A model generated the notes under the pieces. The model was not told the origin of the DNA. It did not search any database and saw only the letters and a program-made list of their open reading frames with translations. 62,136 nucleotides of DNA from Deltaproteobacteria bacterium (GTDB lineage Bacteria; Myxococcota_A; JAADFL01), in NCBI GenBank assembly GCA_013152945.1, contig JAADFL010000202.1:1-62136 (forward strand), written 5' to 3'. The position numbers and the translations under genes are program-made. Position 1 is the first letter of the stretch. The number at the start of each line of letters is the position of its first letter. Positions 37,285 to 44,250 of this stretch are shown one piece after another.

Positions 37285-38157
37285 ATGTATTATCTGCTTA
37301 AAATAATGTCATATTTAGCATCATTATTACCCTATGGTATGCTTTTGTGGCTTGGCAAGACCCTGGGCTATTTATGGTTCTTCGTGGTCCGGATCCGGAG
37401 AAAAGTGGTCCTTGCCAATCTGGAAAAGGGTCTTCCCTATCTTGGAAAAGGCGAGCAAAAAAAAATAGCGCTCGGGTGTTATTGCAACCTGTGCATGTCG
37501 GCAATGGAGTTCCTGGTCCTTGCCAGCCCGGGGAGGGCTGGAAAGATAATTTCCAGGGTTGATATCCATGGCCGGAAAATACTGGAACGTGAGCTTGGCC
37601 GCGGAAAGGGCGTGATAGTCGTATCCGGCCATGTTGGTAACTGGGACTTGTTGGCCGTGACCCATGCTGTTGCCGGGTTTCCCGTGTACGTTGTTACAAA
37701 GGCGCTCAAGAAAAGAGGCATAGACAGGTTCTGGCATGAGGCGCGAAGCCGGCTTGGTGTGAATTTACTTGCAGACAAAGGCTCGCTTGCCTCATTATTC
37801 GAGGTTTTGAAGGCCGGTGGTATACTTGCCCTGGTGGTTGATCAACACGATCCAAGGCCGTCGGCTTCGGTAGTATCTTTTTTGGGTCGAAAAGCCGCGG
37901 CTACTTCTGCACCTGCTGTTTTGGCATTGCGAACCGGTGCTCCGGTGGTTCCTGTTTTTATAAACAGGCACAATGGCGACAGGAACAAAAGTTCTGGCCA
38001 TGTCGTCACCGTGCATGAACCCCTCAATATACCTGAATCAGGTAATTTCAAGCAGGACGTGCTCGAGCTTACGCAGTTGATACAACAGAAGGTCGAACAG
38101 GCAGTGCTCGAAAATCCGCCGGACTGGCTTTGGTTGCACAGGAGATGGAAAAAATAG
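37285..38157 (+). CDS. lpxL: Lipid A late acyltransferase, LpxL/HtrB family
   Basis: 290 residues. N-terminal membrane helix, then the catalytic H(x4)D in SGHVGNWDLL (H116, D121), VVTKALKKRGIDRFWHEAR and the substrate-site VVDQHDPRPSASVVSFLG. These are the four blocks of the LpxL/LpxM family, which adds a secondary acyl chain from acyl-ACP. LpxL versus LpxM cannot be told from sequence alone. A ~120-bp AT-rich gap separates it from lpxK, possibly with an internal promoter. Confidence 0.88.
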   Translation: MYYLLKIMSYLASLLPYGMLLWLGKTLGYLWFFVVRIRRKVVLANLEKGLPYLGKGEQKKIALGCYCNLCMSAMEFLVLASPGRAGKIISRVDIHGRKILERELGRGKGVIVVSGHVGNWDLLAVTHAVAGFPVYVVTKALKKRGIDRFWHEARSRLGVNLLADKGSLASLFEVLKAGGILALVVDQHDPRPSASVVSFLGRKAAATSAPAVLALRTGAPVVPVFINRHNGDRNKSSGHVVTVHEPLNIPESGNFKQDVLELTQLIQQKVEQAVLENPPDWLWLHRRWKK

Positions 38158-38222
38158 TAAAACATGAAGAAACCGGAGTTAGGAGCATTGAATAATTATG
38201 AAAGCAATTTTGTATTCACCGC

Positions 38223-39272
38223 ATGACATACAGCATGGATGAACATATGGAACATATGGAACACATGGAACTGCCCGGGGGCATAACCAGGGAAGGTTTA
38301 AAATCAGCCGTAAAGGCCATGAAGGGAAATGACATAATTGTGCTTGGTGATTTCGTTCTGGACCGGTACCTGTATGGCCGTACATCCAGGATATCCAGGG
38401 AAGCTCCCGTTCTTATCGTGGAGCAGGAGAAGGAAGATTACAGGCTCGGCGGTGCCGCCAACGTGGCTCTCAACCTTGCCATGATGGGTGCAAGGGTCTT
38501 TGCCGTGTCCCTTTTGGGCACGGACCGGACAGCAAACACGCTGGAAAATCTCTGCAAGGAGCAAGGAATTGACACAAACGGCTTGATTCGAGTACCCGGG
38601 CGCAAAACGCCTGTAAAAACCAGGGTCATGGCCGGCGGTGTTAATACGGCCAGGCAGCAGATGCTTCGAATAGACAAAGGGGGAGGCTTTGATCCGGAAT
38701 TTATGACACATGATGCCATTCAATACCTTGAAGACTTGTCCGAAAGAGCCGATGCACTTGTCGTATCCGACTATGGCCTCGGAAGTGTAAATGATTCCTT
38801 TCTGGATTTCGCCCTTGGGCTTGCACGGAAACAACGGGTAATCGGGGATTCAAGGTACCATGTCGAGCGATTCAGGCATTTAACGGCAGTGACGCCCAAT
38901 GAACCCGAGGCCGGGCAGGCAACAGGAATGCATTTTTCAAATACCAGTGATGCGATTTCAGCAGGCCTTTTATTGTTGAACATGTTGGAAGTTGATCATG
39001 TTCTCCTCAAGAGGGGAAGGCTGGGAATGATCTTGTGCGACAAGAGTAAGGAGCCTGTGGTAATCGGTCCATTTGGAAAAGCAGGCCGGGTCGTGGATGT
39101 CACCGGAGCCGGTGACACGGTATTGGCTGTTTTCAGCCTGGCACTGGCTGCAGGTGTCAGCCCAATCGAATCGGCATTGCTTTCCAATATTGCCGGCGGC
39201 CTGGTTGTGCTCAAGCCGGGACCTGCAGGGATCACCCCGGCTGAACTCGAATCCGCAGTGGGAGAAATCTAG
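38223..39272 (+). CDS. hldE1: D-glycero-beta-D-manno-heptose-7-phosphate kinase (HldE domain 1, RfaE1)
   Basis: 349 residues of PfkB fold. IIVLGDFVLDRYLYG, RISREAPVLIVE and LGGAANVALNLAMMGA are the HldE kinase N-terminal signatures; DVTGAGDTVLAVFSLALAAG is the PfkB signature 2 with the catalytic Asp. The N-terminus carries a Met-rich repeat (HMEHMEHME) from a short DNA repeat, so the exact start is uncertain. It makes heptose-1,7-bisphosphate for the LPS core. In many bacteria it is fused to the adenylyltransferase; here an in-frame TAG separates them with no spacer. Confidence 0.95.
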   Translation: MTYSMDEHMEHMEHMELPGGITREGLKSAVKAMKGNDIIVLGDFVLDRYLYGRTSRISREAPVLIVEQEKEDYRLGGAANVALNLAMMGARVFAVSLLGTDRTANTLENLCKEQGIDTNGLIRVPGRKTPVKTRVMAGGVNTARQQMLRIDKGGGFDPEFMTHDAIQYLEDLSERADALVVSDYGLGSVNDSFLDFALGLARKQRVIGDSRYHVERFRHLTAVTPNEPEAGQATGMHFSNTSDAISAGLLLLNMLEVDHVLLKRGRLGMILCDKSKEPVVIGPFGKAGRVVDVTGAGDTVLAVFSLALAAGVSPIESALLSNIAGGLVVLKPGPAGITPAELESAVGEI

Positions 39273-39755
39273 TTGAACGCCGGGGAAAAACTGGTCACAA
39301 TCGACGAACTGGCCGAATGGAGATCCGGATTGCGGCATGCAGGCATTACATTGGCATTGGCGAACGGTATCTTCGATATCTTGCACGTGGGGCATTTGAG
39401 GTACCTCGAGGGCGCATCGAGGCTTGCTGACCGGCTCGTGGTGGCGGTCAATTCCGACAGGACCGCATGTGCGCAAAAAGGTCCCGGAAGGCCCATAATG
39501 CCGGAAAAGGAAAGGGCGGAGTTGATAGCAGGTATCTATTGTGTCGACAGGGTCTGTATCGTAGACGACATGGATATGAGATCCCTGATCAGGCGGATTG
39601 AACCCGATGTCCATGTAAAGGGCACAGACTATACTCCGGACACAGTGCCCGAGGCGGACGAGGTCAGGAAGCACGGTGGAATAGTCGAGGTGGCCGGTGA
39701 CCAAAAGAAACACTCGGCATCGGGAATAATCGAAAAAATCAGGAATAATAAATGA
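39273..39755 (+). CDS. hldE2: Heptose-1-phosphate adenylyltransferase (HldE domain 2, RfaE2)
   Basis: 160 residues, TTG start immediately after the TAG of the kinase gene; GGGAG eight bases upstream. Nucleotidyltransferase signature LALANGIFDILHVGHLRYL (HxGH), then VVAVNSDRT and DYTPDTVPEADEV. It converts heptose-1-phosphate to ADP-heptose. It overlaps the GT2 gene by four bases (ATGA). Confidence 0.95.
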   Translation: MNAGEKLVTIDELAEWRSGLRHAGITLALANGIFDILHVGHLRYLEGASRLADRLVVAVNSDRTACAQKGPGRPIMPEKERAELIAGIYCVDRVCIVDDMDMRSLIRRIEPDVHVKGTDYTPDTVPEADEVRKHGGIVEVAGDQKKHSASGIIEKIRNNK

Positions 39756-40543
39756 CAGCCGGTGGTCCCAAGAAACAGTTTCTATCTGCAATTGTCATTG
39801 CCCAGGACGAGGAGGGCAACATAGAGAGATGCCTTTCTTCTCTTGGATTCTGCGACGAGATTGTTGTCGTGGACGGCGGCAGCAAGGACAGGACTCCGGA
39901 CATCGCCCGGGCAATGGGCGCAAAGGTATTGGAACATCCCTTTGACAATATGAATGCGCAAAAGGACAGGGCGAGGAAGGCTGCAAGAGGTGAATGGGTA
40001 TTCAACCTGGATGCAGACGAAGTAGTGCCTGGATCCTTGGCAATCGAGATCAGGGAAACCATCAAGGGATCAGACCCGGAGATTGGAGGTTTCCTCGTGC
40101 CGAGAAAGACTTTATTGAACGGCAAATGGCTGCGGTGGGGAGGGTACTACCCGGACAGGCAATTGAGGTTGGTGAGAAAAGAACGGGCAAGATGGGACGA
40201 AAGGTACGACCCGCATGACAAGGTGGTTTTGCAGGGCAGTGTCCGAAAATTGAAGAATCCGATGTTGCACTATGCTGCAAGAGATATGGATTACTTGAAA
40301 AAGAGGGCCCAACGTTATGGATTGAAGGCAGCCGTTTCCATGCACGAAAGGGGCGTGGAATGTAATTTCCTTACGCCGGCACTGCATTCTGCGGCCCGTT
40401 TCTTGAAGAGTTTTTTTTTGAAGGGGGGTATGCTCATGGGAGGTCGCGGCTTGACTTTGGCCGGTTATCAAGCATATGAAGTGTTGGTCAAGTACAAGGG
40501 CCTGGCTGAACTGAACAAGAATGGCAGGGCCGGGCGGATCTGA
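39752..40543 (+). CDS. waaE: GT2 glycosyltransferase, WaaE/KdtX-like
   Basis: 263 residues. SAIVIAQDEEGNIERCL, EIVVVDGGSKDRT and FNLDADEVVP (DxD-like metal site) with a Lys-rich tract AQKDRARKAARGEW define the LPS-core beta-1,4-glucosyltransferase branch of GT2. A C-terminal hydrophobic/basic segment may bind the inner membrane. The sugar is likely glucose on heptose I, inferred from family. Confidence 0.88.
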   Translation: MTAGGPKKQFLSAIVIAQDEEGNIERCLSSLGFCDEIVVVDGGSKDRTPDIARAMGAKVLEHPFDNMNAQKDRARKAARGEWVFNLDADEVVPGSLAIEIRETIKGSDPEIGGFLVPRKTLLNGKWLRWGGYYPDRQLRLVRKERARWDERYDPHDKVVLQGSVRKLKNPMLHYAARDMDYLKKRAQRYGLKAAVSMHERGVECNFLTPALHSAARFLKSFFLKGGMLMGGRGLTLAGYQAYEVLVKYKGLAELNKNGRAGRI

Positions 40544-40559
40544 AAATGGAGGATGGATC

Positions 40560-40928
40560 GTGGCTATAGACAAGGAACTCCTGGATATACTCGCTTGTCC
40601 CAAGTGCAAGGGTGAAATTTCTTTGAACAAGGCCCAAGACGGACTTTTGTGTTTTTCCTGCAAGCTCCTTTACGAGATAGAGGATGACATCCCAATCATG
40701 CTGATAGATGAGGCAAAGCCCTTTGACCAGGTGCCGAAGGAGAGGCTGCGGGTAAAGGCGGGGCCTGGCGCGAAGAAGGCGGGTACGGGGAAAAAGGCAA
40801 GGAAGGCAGGCCGGAAGAGGACTGTTGCAAGGAAACCTGCAACAAAGAAAACCGCAACAAAGAAAAAAAGTCCTGCCAAGAAAAAGACCAAGACTGTAAG
40901 GGCAGGAAAGAAAAGCAGGACCACATAG
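40560..40928 (+). CDS. Trm112/YcaR-like zinc protein fused to histone-H1-like Lys-Ala tail
   Basis: GTG at 40560 has GGAGG seven bases upstream and lies past the GT2 stop, so it is preferred over the ATG at 40521. Residues ~5-55 are a Trm112p-like fold (LLDILACPKCKGEI; LLCFSCKLLYEIEDDIPIML) with four zinc Cys. The remaining ~65 residues are almost only Lys, Ala, Arg, Thr and Gly (KKTATKKKSPAKKKTK), like histone H1 or AlgP tails. In E. coli ycaR lies next to lpxK and kdsB, which agrees with this position. The tail is unusual for the family and should bind nucleic acid or another polyanion such as LPS phosphate. Confidence 0.85.
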   Translation: MAIDKELLDILACPKCKGEISLNKAQDGLLCFSCKLLYEIEDDIPIMLIDEAKPFDQVPKERLRVKAGPGAKKAGTGKKARKAGRKRTVARKPATKKTATKKKSPAKKKTKTVRAGKKSRTT

Positions 40929-40929
40929 T

Positions 40930-42012
40930 ATGTCCGAACAGAAATTGAGCCCTATTATCCGGCCCAAGCTGGTGCCTGCAAAGATACTGATTGTCAGGCT
41001 TGGCGCTGTCGGTGACGTAATACAGGCTCTGCCGGCTCTTTATGCACTTCGAAACGAGTATCCAAGGTCTCACATTGCATGGGTGGTGGAGGAACAGGCT
41101 GCTGAAATCGTCAAGGCCCAACCCGAAGTGGACGAGGTCTTTGTGTTCGAGCGCAGGAAACTGCGAAACCTGTTCAAGCTCGGAACCGCTGCCTGGGCCT
41201 TTCAACTCTTTAAATCATTTATCAGGCTTTTGCGGGGGCGCAAGTTTTCACTTGCCATAGATTTGCACAACATATTCAGAAGCGGTCTCATATCAAAGCT
41301 CTCCAGGGCGCCTGCCAGGCTGGTTGCCAGGCCGTCGAGGGAGGGTAACTGGTTCTTCAACAATTGGCGCTTCAGGTTGCCAAAGTCCCTGGTGCATACA
41401 ACCGACAGGCATGTGGGGCTATTGAGGAAACTGGGGGTTAAGAGGGAACCGGAGGTTCCCAGGGTTCCCATAGACCCTGCAGACCGGGAATTCGTGCAAA
41501 CCTTTTTCGAAAGAAAGAAGTTGGATCCGGAAAGGGTCGTGGTGATTCATCCCGGGGCCAATTGGAGCAGCAAGAGATGGCCCGAGGAGCGATATGGAGA
41601 ATTGGCCGAGCGATTGAACTCGGAACTTGACTACATACCCGTGATCACCTGGGGGCCGGGGGAAGAACATCTGGCCAAGAGGGTTGTAAAGCTGTCGCAC
41701 GAAAAGGCTGTAATGGCATATCCGACCACCTTGAAACAGCTTGCTTCCCTTTGCAAGAGTTCCAGGTTGTTCGTGGGGCCTGACACGGGTCCCTTGCACC
41801 TGGCCTCGGCCGTGGGAACGCCTTCGGTGGCTCTTTACGGGCCGACCAGCCCTGCGAGGTTCAGTCCCAGGGGCGGGAAAGTCAAGATAGTGGCAAGGGA
41901 TATCAAGTGCAGCGGCTGTATGCGGAGAAAGTGCAGGAAACTGGATTGCATGAAGAGGATCACGGTTCACGAGGTCTTCATGGTTGCCCGGGAAATGGTT
42001 GGTTCCGCCTGA
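40930..42012 (+). CDS. waaF: ADP-heptose:LPS heptosyltransferase (GT9)
   Basis: 360 residues starting two bases after the previous stop. ILIVRLGAVGDVIQALPAL is the GT9 N-terminal block. VVIHPGANWSSKRWPEERY and GPDTGPLHLASAVGTPSVAL form the ADP-heptose site. It transfers heptose to the Kdo or heptose of the inner core. WaaC or WaaF cannot be separated with certainty. It uses the product of the two hldE genes just upstream. Confidence 0.92.
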   Translation: MSEQKLSPIIRPKLVPAKILIVRLGAVGDVIQALPALYALRNEYPRSHIAWVVEEQAAEIVKAQPEVDEVFVFERRKLRNLFKLGTAAWAFQLFKSFIRLLRGRKFSLAIDLHNIFRSGLISKLSRAPARLVARPSREGNWFFNNWRFRLPKSLVHTTDRHVGLLRKLGVKREPEVPRVPIDPADREFVQTFFERKKLDPERVVVIHPGANWSSKRWPEERYGELAERLNSELDYIPVITWGPGEEHLAKRVVKLSHEKAVMAYPTTLKQLASLCKSSRLFVGPDTGPLHLASAVGTPSVALYGPTSPARFSPRGGKVKIVARDIKCSGCMRRKCRKLDCMKRITVHEVFMVAREMVGSA

Positions 42013-42033
42013 CCGGGTTTTGAGGGATTCTGT

Positions 42034-43188
42034 ATAATCAAGATTTGGCACACCCTTTCAAGTTCCAGGTACACCGGGGCTGCCGAGCCTGTGCTGACCC
42101 TCTGTAACGGCCTGAAGCATCTCGGTAATGATGTTGACCTGTTCCTGGAGACCAAGAGAAAGGGCGATCTGGCTGAAACGGCCCTGACCCGCTTCGACTT
42201 GGAGCCCAGAACGGATCTCTCGTTATCCGTCAAGTCGGGGCCCATGGATTTTGTACATGACCTCAAGTTTCTTGCAGCATCCTTCGAATCCAAAGACAGG
42301 CCGAAAATAGTCCATTGCCACGCTTCCCACGATCATGTGCTTTCAGCCCTGGCTCGTTTGAAAACTCGTTTAAGAGCAACTGGTGCCCCGGTCATTGTGA
42401 GACACCTTCATACGGATGGAGCGGCTAAATCATCCATGCTCTATTATCGGCTCTGGAAAAAGACGGATGGTGTTGTGACCGCCTCCTTGCAGATTGCCGA
42501 ACAATTGAAACACAACCACGGGTTCCCGCAGGATAGGATTCTTGTTCTGCAAAACAGCGTGGACCCTGATCTTTTTACGCCGAATGGCCCGGGCCGTGAC
42601 GAGATTCGGGCGTCTTTAGGGCTTGTTGACGGTGATTTTCTTTTCGGCATGGTGGCAAGGTTCAGGCCGCAGAGGGGACACGGGGATCTGGTGCATGCCT
42701 TTTATCGGCGCTTGAAACAGGTCAAGAGGCTTCATCTCGTGCTCGTGGGCAGGGGAGAGGAACACGAGCGCATTGCCGGTTTGTGCCGTGAGCTTGGACT
42801 CGATGACAGGGTGCATCTCGCGGGTTTCGTGAAGCAAGAGAATCTGCCTGAAATTTATCGTGCCATGGATGCGGCCTTGTTGATGAGAGAGGGGAGTGAT
42901 GCAGGGTGCAGGGCCGTGTTGGAAGCCATGGCTTGCGGACTGCCTGTAATCGGCACGAACAGGGCTTCCATGCCTGCACTTATTGATGACGGAGTAACCG
43001 GGATGGTCGTGCCCGGGGATGACGCAGATGAGGTGGCAAGGGTCATGCTGGAAATGTTTTCATCAGGGAAAAGGGCAAAGGAAATGGGAGTAGCCGCCCG
43101 GAACAGGGTCCTTTCCGGTTTTTCACAAGCCGGGCGTGCTGCGCGCTGCCAGGATTTTTATTATTCGTTGTTGTCAAATTCGCAATAA
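42034..43188 (+). CDS. GT4 glycosyltransferase with probable AUA start codon
   Basis: The coding frame is open from directly after the heptosyltransferase TGA (42010-42012) in the same frame. Translation from 42034 gives (M)IKIWHTLSSSRYTGAAEP, the expected GT4 N-terminus; the first ATG/GTG/TTG is the GTG at 42091, which would delete this beta strand and the ligand loop. GAGGGA (42022-42027) lies six bases before ATA at 42034, a proper ribosome-site distance. Later motifs: LVGRGEEHERIAGLC and the retaining-GT region DAALLMREGSDAGCRAVLEAMACGLPVI. Probable LPS-core or O-chain sugar transferase. ATC at 42037 is an alternative; a G-to-A sequence error is possible. Confidence 0.85.
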   Translation: MIKIWHTLSSSRYTGAAEPVLTLCNGLKHLGNDVDLFLETKRKGDLAETALTRFDLEPRTDLSLSVKSGPMDFVHDLKFLAASFESKDRPKIVHCHASHDHVLSALARLKTRLRATGAPVIVRHLHTDGAAKSSMLYYRLWKKTDGVVTASLQIAEQLKHNHGFPQDRILVLQNSVDPDLFTPNGPGRDEIRASLGLVDGDFLFGMVARFRPQRGHGDLVHAFYRRLKQVKRLHLVLVGRGEEHERIAGLCRELGLDDRVHLAGFVKQENLPEIYRAMDAALLMREGSDAGCRAVLEAMACGLPVIGTNRASMPALIDDGVTGMVVPGDDADEVARVMLEMFSSGKRAKEMGVAARNRVLSGFSQAGRAARCQDFYYSLLSNSQ

Positions 43189-43400
43189 GCCCAACCCCGC
43201 CATTCTCCCGGGCGACACAACCTGCGTCAAAATATTACACGGCGGATAAGAACATGTTCCGTAAAACGCCGCCTGCCGTATTACCCGCCGTTCAGAGAAA
43301 AGAAAAATATTTCCTAACGATCGTTGGAAGCACAACCGGTTTGAAATTATTTCCGATAACGTTTATTACAATCATGAGAACAGTGCATGGAGGTGGATGA

Positions 43401-43718
43401 ATGATTTTGACTAATACGGAGGAAATACCAGGTTACCGGATTTCCAAATACCTGGGACTGGTTCAGGGAAATACGATACGGGCCAAGAACATCGGGCGTG
43501 ACTTGATGGCAGGTCTCAAGAACTTGGTGGGAGGAGAGATCAAGGGCTATACAGAACTCATGAAAGAGGCCAGGACCGAGGCAACAGCCAGGATGATCGA
43601 ACAGGCTGAAACGCTGGGGGCGGACGCAATAATAAATATTCGTTTCGCCACATCGTCGGTGATGCAGGGTGCTTCAGAGCTGTTTGCCTATGGCACCGCG
43701 GTAAAAATATCGAAATAA
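43401..43718 (+). CDS. YbjQ-family protein (UPF0145)
   Basis: 105 residues, whole-length match in style to YbjQ: TNTEEIPGYRISKYLGLVQG at the start, GGEIKGYTELMKEARTEA in the middle, LGADAIINIRFATS at the end. The family forms pentameric rings of unknown function and is named 'heavy-metal-binding' without proof. Good GGAGG site. A second paralogue follows. Confidence 0.92.
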   Translation: MILTNTEEIPGYRISKYLGLVQGNTIRAKNIGRDLMAGLKNLVGGEIKGYTELMKEARTEATARMIEQAETLGADAIINIRFATSSVMQGASELFAYGTAVKISK

Positions 43719-43779
43719 GATACTGCAATAGAGATAGTCCGGGCGAAAACGAGTGACAGGCGGGAAGGGGTGAGATTGA

Positions 43780-44250
43780 ATGTCTGAATTGATAGTGATT
43801 CTAATATACTTGTCGAGTTTTATATTCTTTTTCTATGCAATCGGGAAAATCATCGAGATCCGGCATCTGAAGAACCTGGAAAGTAGGGAAAAGGCTCTTT
43901 CCGGTATGGTGTTGACAAATACAAAGAAATTACCGGGCGATTTGATCGGTGAAAAAGCGTGGTTATGCCAGGGTTCGGTGGTCATAGGTGCGGACCACTT
44001 CAAGAGATTGGCTGCAGGCCTACGCAATATCGTGGGCGGCAGAATGAAATCGATCGAGAGCGTTCTGGATAGGGCCAGGCGCGAAGCTGTCTTGAGAATG
44101 GCGGAACAAGCCAAGCTCGATGGTGCTTCGGCACTGATAAACATTCGTCTCGAGACCTCTACTATCGGTACAGCAGGCAATGGAAATGGTTTGATGATAG
44201 CCGAAGTTTTGGCCTATGGAACAGCTTTCAGGGCAAGGGCCAAATTTTGA
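43780..44250 (+). CDS. Membrane-anchored YbjQ paralogue
   Basis: 156 residues. A single N-terminal helix (LIVILIYLSSFIFFFYAIG) precedes a YbjQ domain with the same blocks as the previous gene: MVLTNTKKLPGDLIGE, GGRMKSIESVLDRARREA and LDGASALINIRLETS. A basic patch after the helix places the domain in the cytoplasm. Its association with the soluble paralogue and the kinase gene suggests a membrane complex; this is inference. GGGGTGA lies just before the ATG. Confidence 0.9.
   Translation: MSELIVILIYLSSFIFFFYAIGKIIEIRHLKNLESREKALSGMVLTNTKKLPGDLIGEKAWLCQGSVVIGADHFKRLAAGLRNIVGGRMKSIESVLDRARREAVLRMAEQAKLDGASALINIRLETSTIGTAGNGNGLMIAEVLAYGTAFRARAKF

What the first reader, a model, noticed from the sequence alone, without database searches (positions are those of the whole stretch)
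42013..42093. Glycosyltransferase gene that appears to start at AUA
Seen: the GT4 N-terminal strand and loop (IKIWHTLSSSRYTGAAEP) is encoded upstream of the first ATG/GTG/TTG (GTG 42091). Between the preceding in-frame TGA (42010) and 42091 the only start-like codons are ATA 42034, ATC 42037 and ATT 42043. GAGGGA sits six bases before ATA. Known: GT4 enzymes need this first strand and glycine-containing loop. Inference: initiation at AUA (or AUC), perhaps keeping expression low, or an ATG-to-ATA change or error. A fusion by UGA readthrough from the heptosyltransferase (same frame) is a third option.
Basis: partly seen in the sequence, partly recalled or inferred. Interest (0 to 1): 0.6.

Follow-up and report, generated by a model that had tools for sequence, protein, structure and literature searches.

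The report
Sugar-transferase gene lacking normal start codon
A gene for a lipopolysaccharide-type sugar transferase has AUC (or the AUA just before it) exactly where related bacteria have their normal start codon, so it is either read weakly from a rare start codon, recently damaged, or misread in the assembly; such starts are rare but already known.

Summary
In frame, no ATG, GTG, TTG or CTG lies between TGA 42010 and GTG 42091, yet the intervening codons encode the conserved GT4 N-terminus. None of 85,624 18-residue stretches from the sampled own genome fits the relatives' N-terminal profile as well. Residues T13, G14 and P18, encoded before GTG 42091, are invariant in 33 sequences, so a GTG start is unlikely.

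The interpretation needs one correction. In 29 of 34 relatives ATG, GTG or TTG sits in the column of ATC 42037; none has a start in the column of ATA 42034. The ancestral start was therefore at 42037 and reads AUC today. AUA 42034 is nearer the weak Shine-Dalgarno (GAGG), so either codon could be used now.

Fusion with the upstream heptosyltransferase is not supported: in the two relatives that keep the gene pair, the genes are separate, in different frames, and the GT4 gene starts with ATG.

The source is a 218-contig draft genome with no relative below phylum in the held set, so an assembly error, population variant or start-loss mutation cannot be excluded. Natural AUA, AUC, AUU and GUC starts are already described. 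If real, this is one more case of a known kind.

The parts
40930..42012 (+). Upstream GT9 heptosyltransferase gene (360 aa), ATG start, TGA stop 42010-42012, same frame as the GT4 gene
   Evidence: PF01075 E 2.5e-41; TIGR02193/02201/02195 below cut-off
42022..42025 (+). Weak Shine-Dalgarno GAGG (inside GAGGGA), 8 nt before ATA 42034 and 11 nt before ATC 42037 counted from its last G
   Evidence: core anti-SD duplex -6.1 kcal/mol; 17-18% of random coding positions equal it
42034..42036 (+).
42037..42039 (+). ATC, at the column where 29 of 34 relatives have ATG, GTG or TTG; most likely ancestral start position
42037..42090 (+). Coding sequence of GT4 N-terminal strand and loop IKIWHTLSSSRYTGAAEP upstream of the first canonical start
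   Evidence: profile score 20.7 bits, 0 of 85,624 own-genome 18-mers as high; invariant T13, G14, P18
42091..42093 (+). GTG, first canonical start in frame; corresponds to residue 19, within the EPML/EPVL segment just after the loop, so unlikely to be the start
   Evidence: solo fold puts it in a helix but with pLDDT 42, not usable
42037..43188 (+). GT4 glycosyltransferase gene, open through 383 codons to the stop
   Evidence: PF00534 E 1.2e-32, PF13439 E 6.2e-16, PF13579 E 1e-9

Best explanation
This is an intact GT4 glycosyltransferase gene, last of an LPS-core-like cluster (hldE kinase half, hldE nucleotidyltransferase half, GT2, Trm112-like, GT9 heptosyltransferase, GT4), whose start codon is not canonical. 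The ancestral start lay at 42037 and now reads AUC. Ribosomes most likely still make the full-length enzyme at a low rate from AUC 42037, or from AUA 42034 one codon earlier, using the weak GAGG and the ribosomes that finish the heptosyltransferase 21-24 nt upstream. Shown: no canonical start; the N-terminus is conserved coding sequence; the start column of relatives is 42037. Inferred: that the sequence is correct, that initiation happens there, and that it is weak.
For: Codons as described. 29 of 34 relatives have ATG (7), GTG (13) or TTG (9) exactly at this column. The window's N-terminal 18 residues fit the relatives' profile better than any of 85,624 own-genome 18-mers. Residues upstream of GTG 42091 (T13, G14, P18) are invariant in 33 sequences. 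The frame is open for 383 codons with GT4 domains above cut-off, and the genome has no close paralogue (next best E 1e-8). Precedents: AUA starts of S. aureus infC, ccpN and citZ, with reporters at about 10% of AUG in poor medium and up to 30% for ccpN in rich medium (PMC13009471); ATC as start of Streptomyces infC and GTC of sigR (PMC5472188).
Against: No expression data. The Shine-Dalgarno is ordinary to weak, whereas the conserved natural AUA/AUU starts described in S. aureus have extended ones (PMC13009471). A draft genome with one copy of the sequence and no relative below phylum cannot rule out a base error, a minority variant or a start-loss mutation.
Confidence: 0.5

Rival explanations
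1. Assembly or consensus error, or a minority strain variant fixed in the consensus: the real start is canonical at 42037 (or 42034).
For: The window lies in a 218-contig draft genome; one base change at 42039 or 42036 suffices; the start column is canonical in 29 of 34 relatives.
Against: The site is in the interior of a 62 kb contig with no homopolymer; the rest of the frame is clean. Expected number of consensus errors at start codons in one genome is small (inference, no reads seen).
Confidence: 0.22
2. Start-loss allele: a real recent mutation has silenced or nearly silenced an otherwise intact gene.
For: A single substitution in the start column would do it; the frame is otherwise intact, as expected for a young lesion.
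Against: No second disruption; no paralogue to take over; some product would still be made from AUC or AUA.
Confidence: 0.18
3. Initiation at GTG 42091 gives a functional shortened protein, perhaps from a promoter whose TATAAT overlaps the ATA ATC codons.
For: GTG 42091 is the first canonical start; CTGACC-18-TATAAT (10 of 12) at 42009-42038 is the best promoter-like site in the 6 kb scanned.
Against: It would drop the first strand and the invariant T13, G14, P18; no homologue starts there; its Shine-Dalgarno is weaker and its start region more folded than 95% of sampled genes. Promoter-like sites number 6 against 4.2 in shuffles.
Confidence: 0.05
4. Read-through of UGA 42010 makes a GT9-GT4 fusion.
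For: Both genes are in the same frame with 21-24 nt between stop and start column.
Against: In the two relatives with the GT9-GT4 pair (L002, L015) the genes are separate, in different frames, and GT4 starts with ATG. Long open frames upstream of GT4 in other high-G+C relatives hold no match to the GT9 and look like wrong-frame sequence.
Confidence: 0.03

Closest known systems
Natural AUA start codons of Staphylococcus aureus infC, ccpN and citZ (PMC13009471)
   Same: Near-cognate AUH codon in the start position of an intact gene; in citZ it is confined to one lineage, as an isolated change.
   Different: Those sites have start-site ribosome profiling and reporter support, and infC and ccpN have extended Shine-Dalgarno pairing; here pairing is short and there are no expression data.
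infC with AUU (E. coli) or AUC (Streptomyces) and sigR with GUC in Streptomyces, repressed by IF3 (PMC5472188)
   Same: A non-canonical start that should make translation low and sensitive to IF3.
   Different: Those are regulators with demonstrated control; this is a glycosyltransferase without a known reason for such control. This genome's own infC frame has a GTG start after AGGAGG.
rpoS ATG to ATA laboratory mutation in E. coli (PMC12864459)
   Same: A single base change in the start codon leaves reduced, not zero, product (up to 5-fold less RpoS).
   Different: Known recent mutation with the parent strain at hand; here the history is inferred from distant relatives.

Membership tests
Glycosyltransferase family GT4 (GT-B fold) | GT4 N-terminal and Glycos_transf_1 C-terminal domains | tested here: met
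   PF13439 59.3 bits (cut-off 28.5), PF13579 39.4 (29.7), PF00534 113.2 (26.4); family profile finds solved BshA-, PimB- and MshA-type structures at E 1e-40 to 1e-33
Glycosyltransferase family GT4 (GT-B fold) | First strand and glycine-containing loop at the N-terminus | tested here: met
   Only if translation starts before 42091: invariant T13 G14 P18, 20.7-bit profile match
Gene with near-cognate (AUH) start codon | No canonical start codon at the homology-defined N-terminus | tested here: met
Gene with near-cognate (AUH) start codon | Same near-cognate codon kept in relatives (seen in some, not all, known cases) | tested here: not met
   All relatives held are phylum-level; 29 of 34 have canonical starts at this column and none has ATA, ATC or ATT there
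Gene with near-cognate (AUH) start codon | Strong or extended Shine-Dalgarno | tested here: inconclusive
   -6.1 kcal/mol core, -8.4 to -9.1 with longer tails; 4-18% of random coding positions as good
Gene with near-cognate (AUH) start codon | Initiation shown by protein N-terminus or ribosome profiling | not testable with these tools
   no expression data
GT9-GT4 fusion protein | One reading frame for both domains in relatives | tested here: not met

The most novel reading that the evidence does not exclude
The AUC/AUA start is genuine and kept by selection as a brake on the last sugar transfer of an LPS-core-like pathway, set by IF3 and coupled to heptosyltransferase translation, which would be a near-cognate start acting on an envelope enzyme rather than a regulator.
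Probability: 0.12. Interest if true: 0.45.

Novelty: new member of a known kind. Interest (0 to 1): 0.25.

Why it matters
Gene finders accept only ATG, GTG and TTG, so such genes are annotated with the wrong N-terminus, here without the conserved first strand and loop. If the start is real it adds an envelope enzyme to the short list of genes with AUC or AUA starts. If it is an error or a lesion, it is a reminder to fix N-termini by homology in draft genomes.

Tried and rejected
(1) GT9-GT4 fusion: several relatives have 530-790-codon open frames around GT4, which looked like fusions; tblastn of the window's GT9 found none in frame, and the upstream residues look like off-frame shadow in high-G+C DNA. 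(2) Codon-usage test of the upstream codons: no power, the target ranks 56 of 238. (3) Start-less genes elsewhere in 379 kb of the same genome: the 22 highest-scoring upstream stretches were listed and inspected by eye only; none stood out. (4) Extended anti-SD pairing: the 16S fragment in this genome ends GGAAUACCUCC instead of GGAUCACCUCC and pairs further with GAGGGATTC (-9.1 kcal/mol, 4% of random positions), but the genome's genes show no use of that extension (GGTATT in 0 of 658 start regions), so I do not rely on it. (5) A closer relative: genome contigs, class and a viral contigs pattern gave none. (6) Structure of the window protein alone: pLDDT 42, not used. (8) One duplex run read the wrong record for the window and was repeated correctly.

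Full report
Observation. The sequence between the heptosyltransferase stop (TGA 42010-42012) and GTG 42091 was read codon by codon. It contains ATA 42034, ATC 42037 and ATT 42043 and no ATG, GTG, TTG or CTG in frame. GAGGGA stands six bases before ATA.

What the gene is. The frame encodes a GT4 glycosyltransferase with both domains well above Pfam cut-offs; a family profile finds solved BshA-, PimB- and MshA-type structures. NCBIfam gives no equivalog above cut-off, so the substrate is unknown. Upstream on the same strand are the two halves of HldE, a GT2, a Trm112-like protein and a GT9 heptosyltransferase, which suggests LPS core synthesis (inference). The genome has no close paralogue.

Where the protein begins. 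34 relatives, all phylum-level and most about 27-37% identical, were fetched. Extended to their N-termini and aligned, 29 have a canonical start (GTG 13, TTG 9, ATG 7) in one single column. That column is ATC 42037 in the window. The column of ATA 42034 holds no start codon in any of the 34. The five exceptions have a canonical codon close by: L011 and L043 three codons upstream, L012 five upstream, L003 two downstream, and L024, a more distant GT4, one downstream. The residues encoded before GTG 42091 include T13, G14 and P18, invariant in 33 sequences. A profile of the relatives' first 18 residues, start column left out, gives the window 20.7 bits, more than any of 85,624 18-mers from the sampled own genome (maximum 15.7), and only in this register. 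So the N-terminus is real coding sequence and the ancestral start was most likely at 42037.

Which codon might be used now. The Shine-Dalgarno is GAGG, -6.1 kcal/mol against the core anti-SD, weaker than that of about 70% of sampled genes at their best start, and matched by 17-18% of random coding positions. Its spacing as computed is 7 nt to ATA and 10 nt to ATC; sampled genes have a median of 5 and a 10th-90th percentile range of 1-10. Homology therefore favours AUC as the ancestral site, and spacing mildly favours AUA as the present one. I cannot separate them.

Rivals. Fusion by UGA read-through looked attractive when long open frames were seen upstream of GT4 in relatives, but these carry no GT9 match; in L002 (the closest relative) and L015 the GT9 gene is in another frame and GT4 starts with ATG. 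A GTG 42091 start would remove invariant residues. The best promoter-like site of the 6 kb scanned, with TATAAT at 42033-42038, overlaps the candidate codons, but such sites are about as common as in shuffles (6 against 4.2 +- 1.8). Base error, population variant and start-loss mutation remain open: the assembly is a 218-contig draft, and no other member of its class is held.

Literature. AUA starts are shown by ribosome profiling in S. aureus infC and ccpN, and in citZ of the NCTC 8325 lineage; reporters gave about 10% of AUG in poor medium and up to 30% for ccpN in rich medium (PMC13009471). infC starts with ATT in E. coli and ATC in Streptomyces, and sigR with GTC under IF3 control (PMC5472188). 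An rpoS ATG to ATA mutation lowered RpoS up to 5-fold although ATA is credited there with at most 1% of ATG efficiency (PMC12864459). In vitro, IF3 disfavours weak third-base pairs (PMC10158994). A near-cognate start here would thus be a new case of a known kind.

Verdict. Observation confirmed; interpretation partly supported, with the start column moved from ATA 42034 to ATC 42037 and the fusion option set aside. Interest is modest because nothing at hand shows that the codon is read or even that the base is right.

Noticed in passing
L078 (G000 contig C176: 3135-3177, minus strand); L055, L056: The only 16S fragment of this genome ends GGCTGGAATACCTCC, whereas all 19 phylum relatives that match the search pattern have GGATCACCTCC. 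Either an unusual anti-Shine-Dalgarno flank or a mis-binned rRNA contig; sampled genes show no use of the changed extension.
   Followed up: partly
window 40560-40928: Trm112/YcaR-like protein (GTG start, good Shine-Dalgarno) carries a long lysine-rich, histone H1-like C-terminal tail (KKTATKKKSPAKKKTKTVRAGKKSRTT).
   Followed up: no
window 42009-42038: CTGACC-18-TATAAT, the best sigma-70-like match in 38000-44000, overlaps the candidate start codons.
   Followed up: partly
window 38223-39755: HldE is split into separate kinase and nucleotidyltransferase genes; the second begins with TTG immediately after the stop codon of the first.
   Followed up: no
L002-L054, start column: The GT4 gene starts with GTG or TTG in 22 of 29 relatives with a canonical start in the column, so weak start codons are usual for this gene in the phylum; whether more than those genomes' average was not tested.
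   Followed up: no
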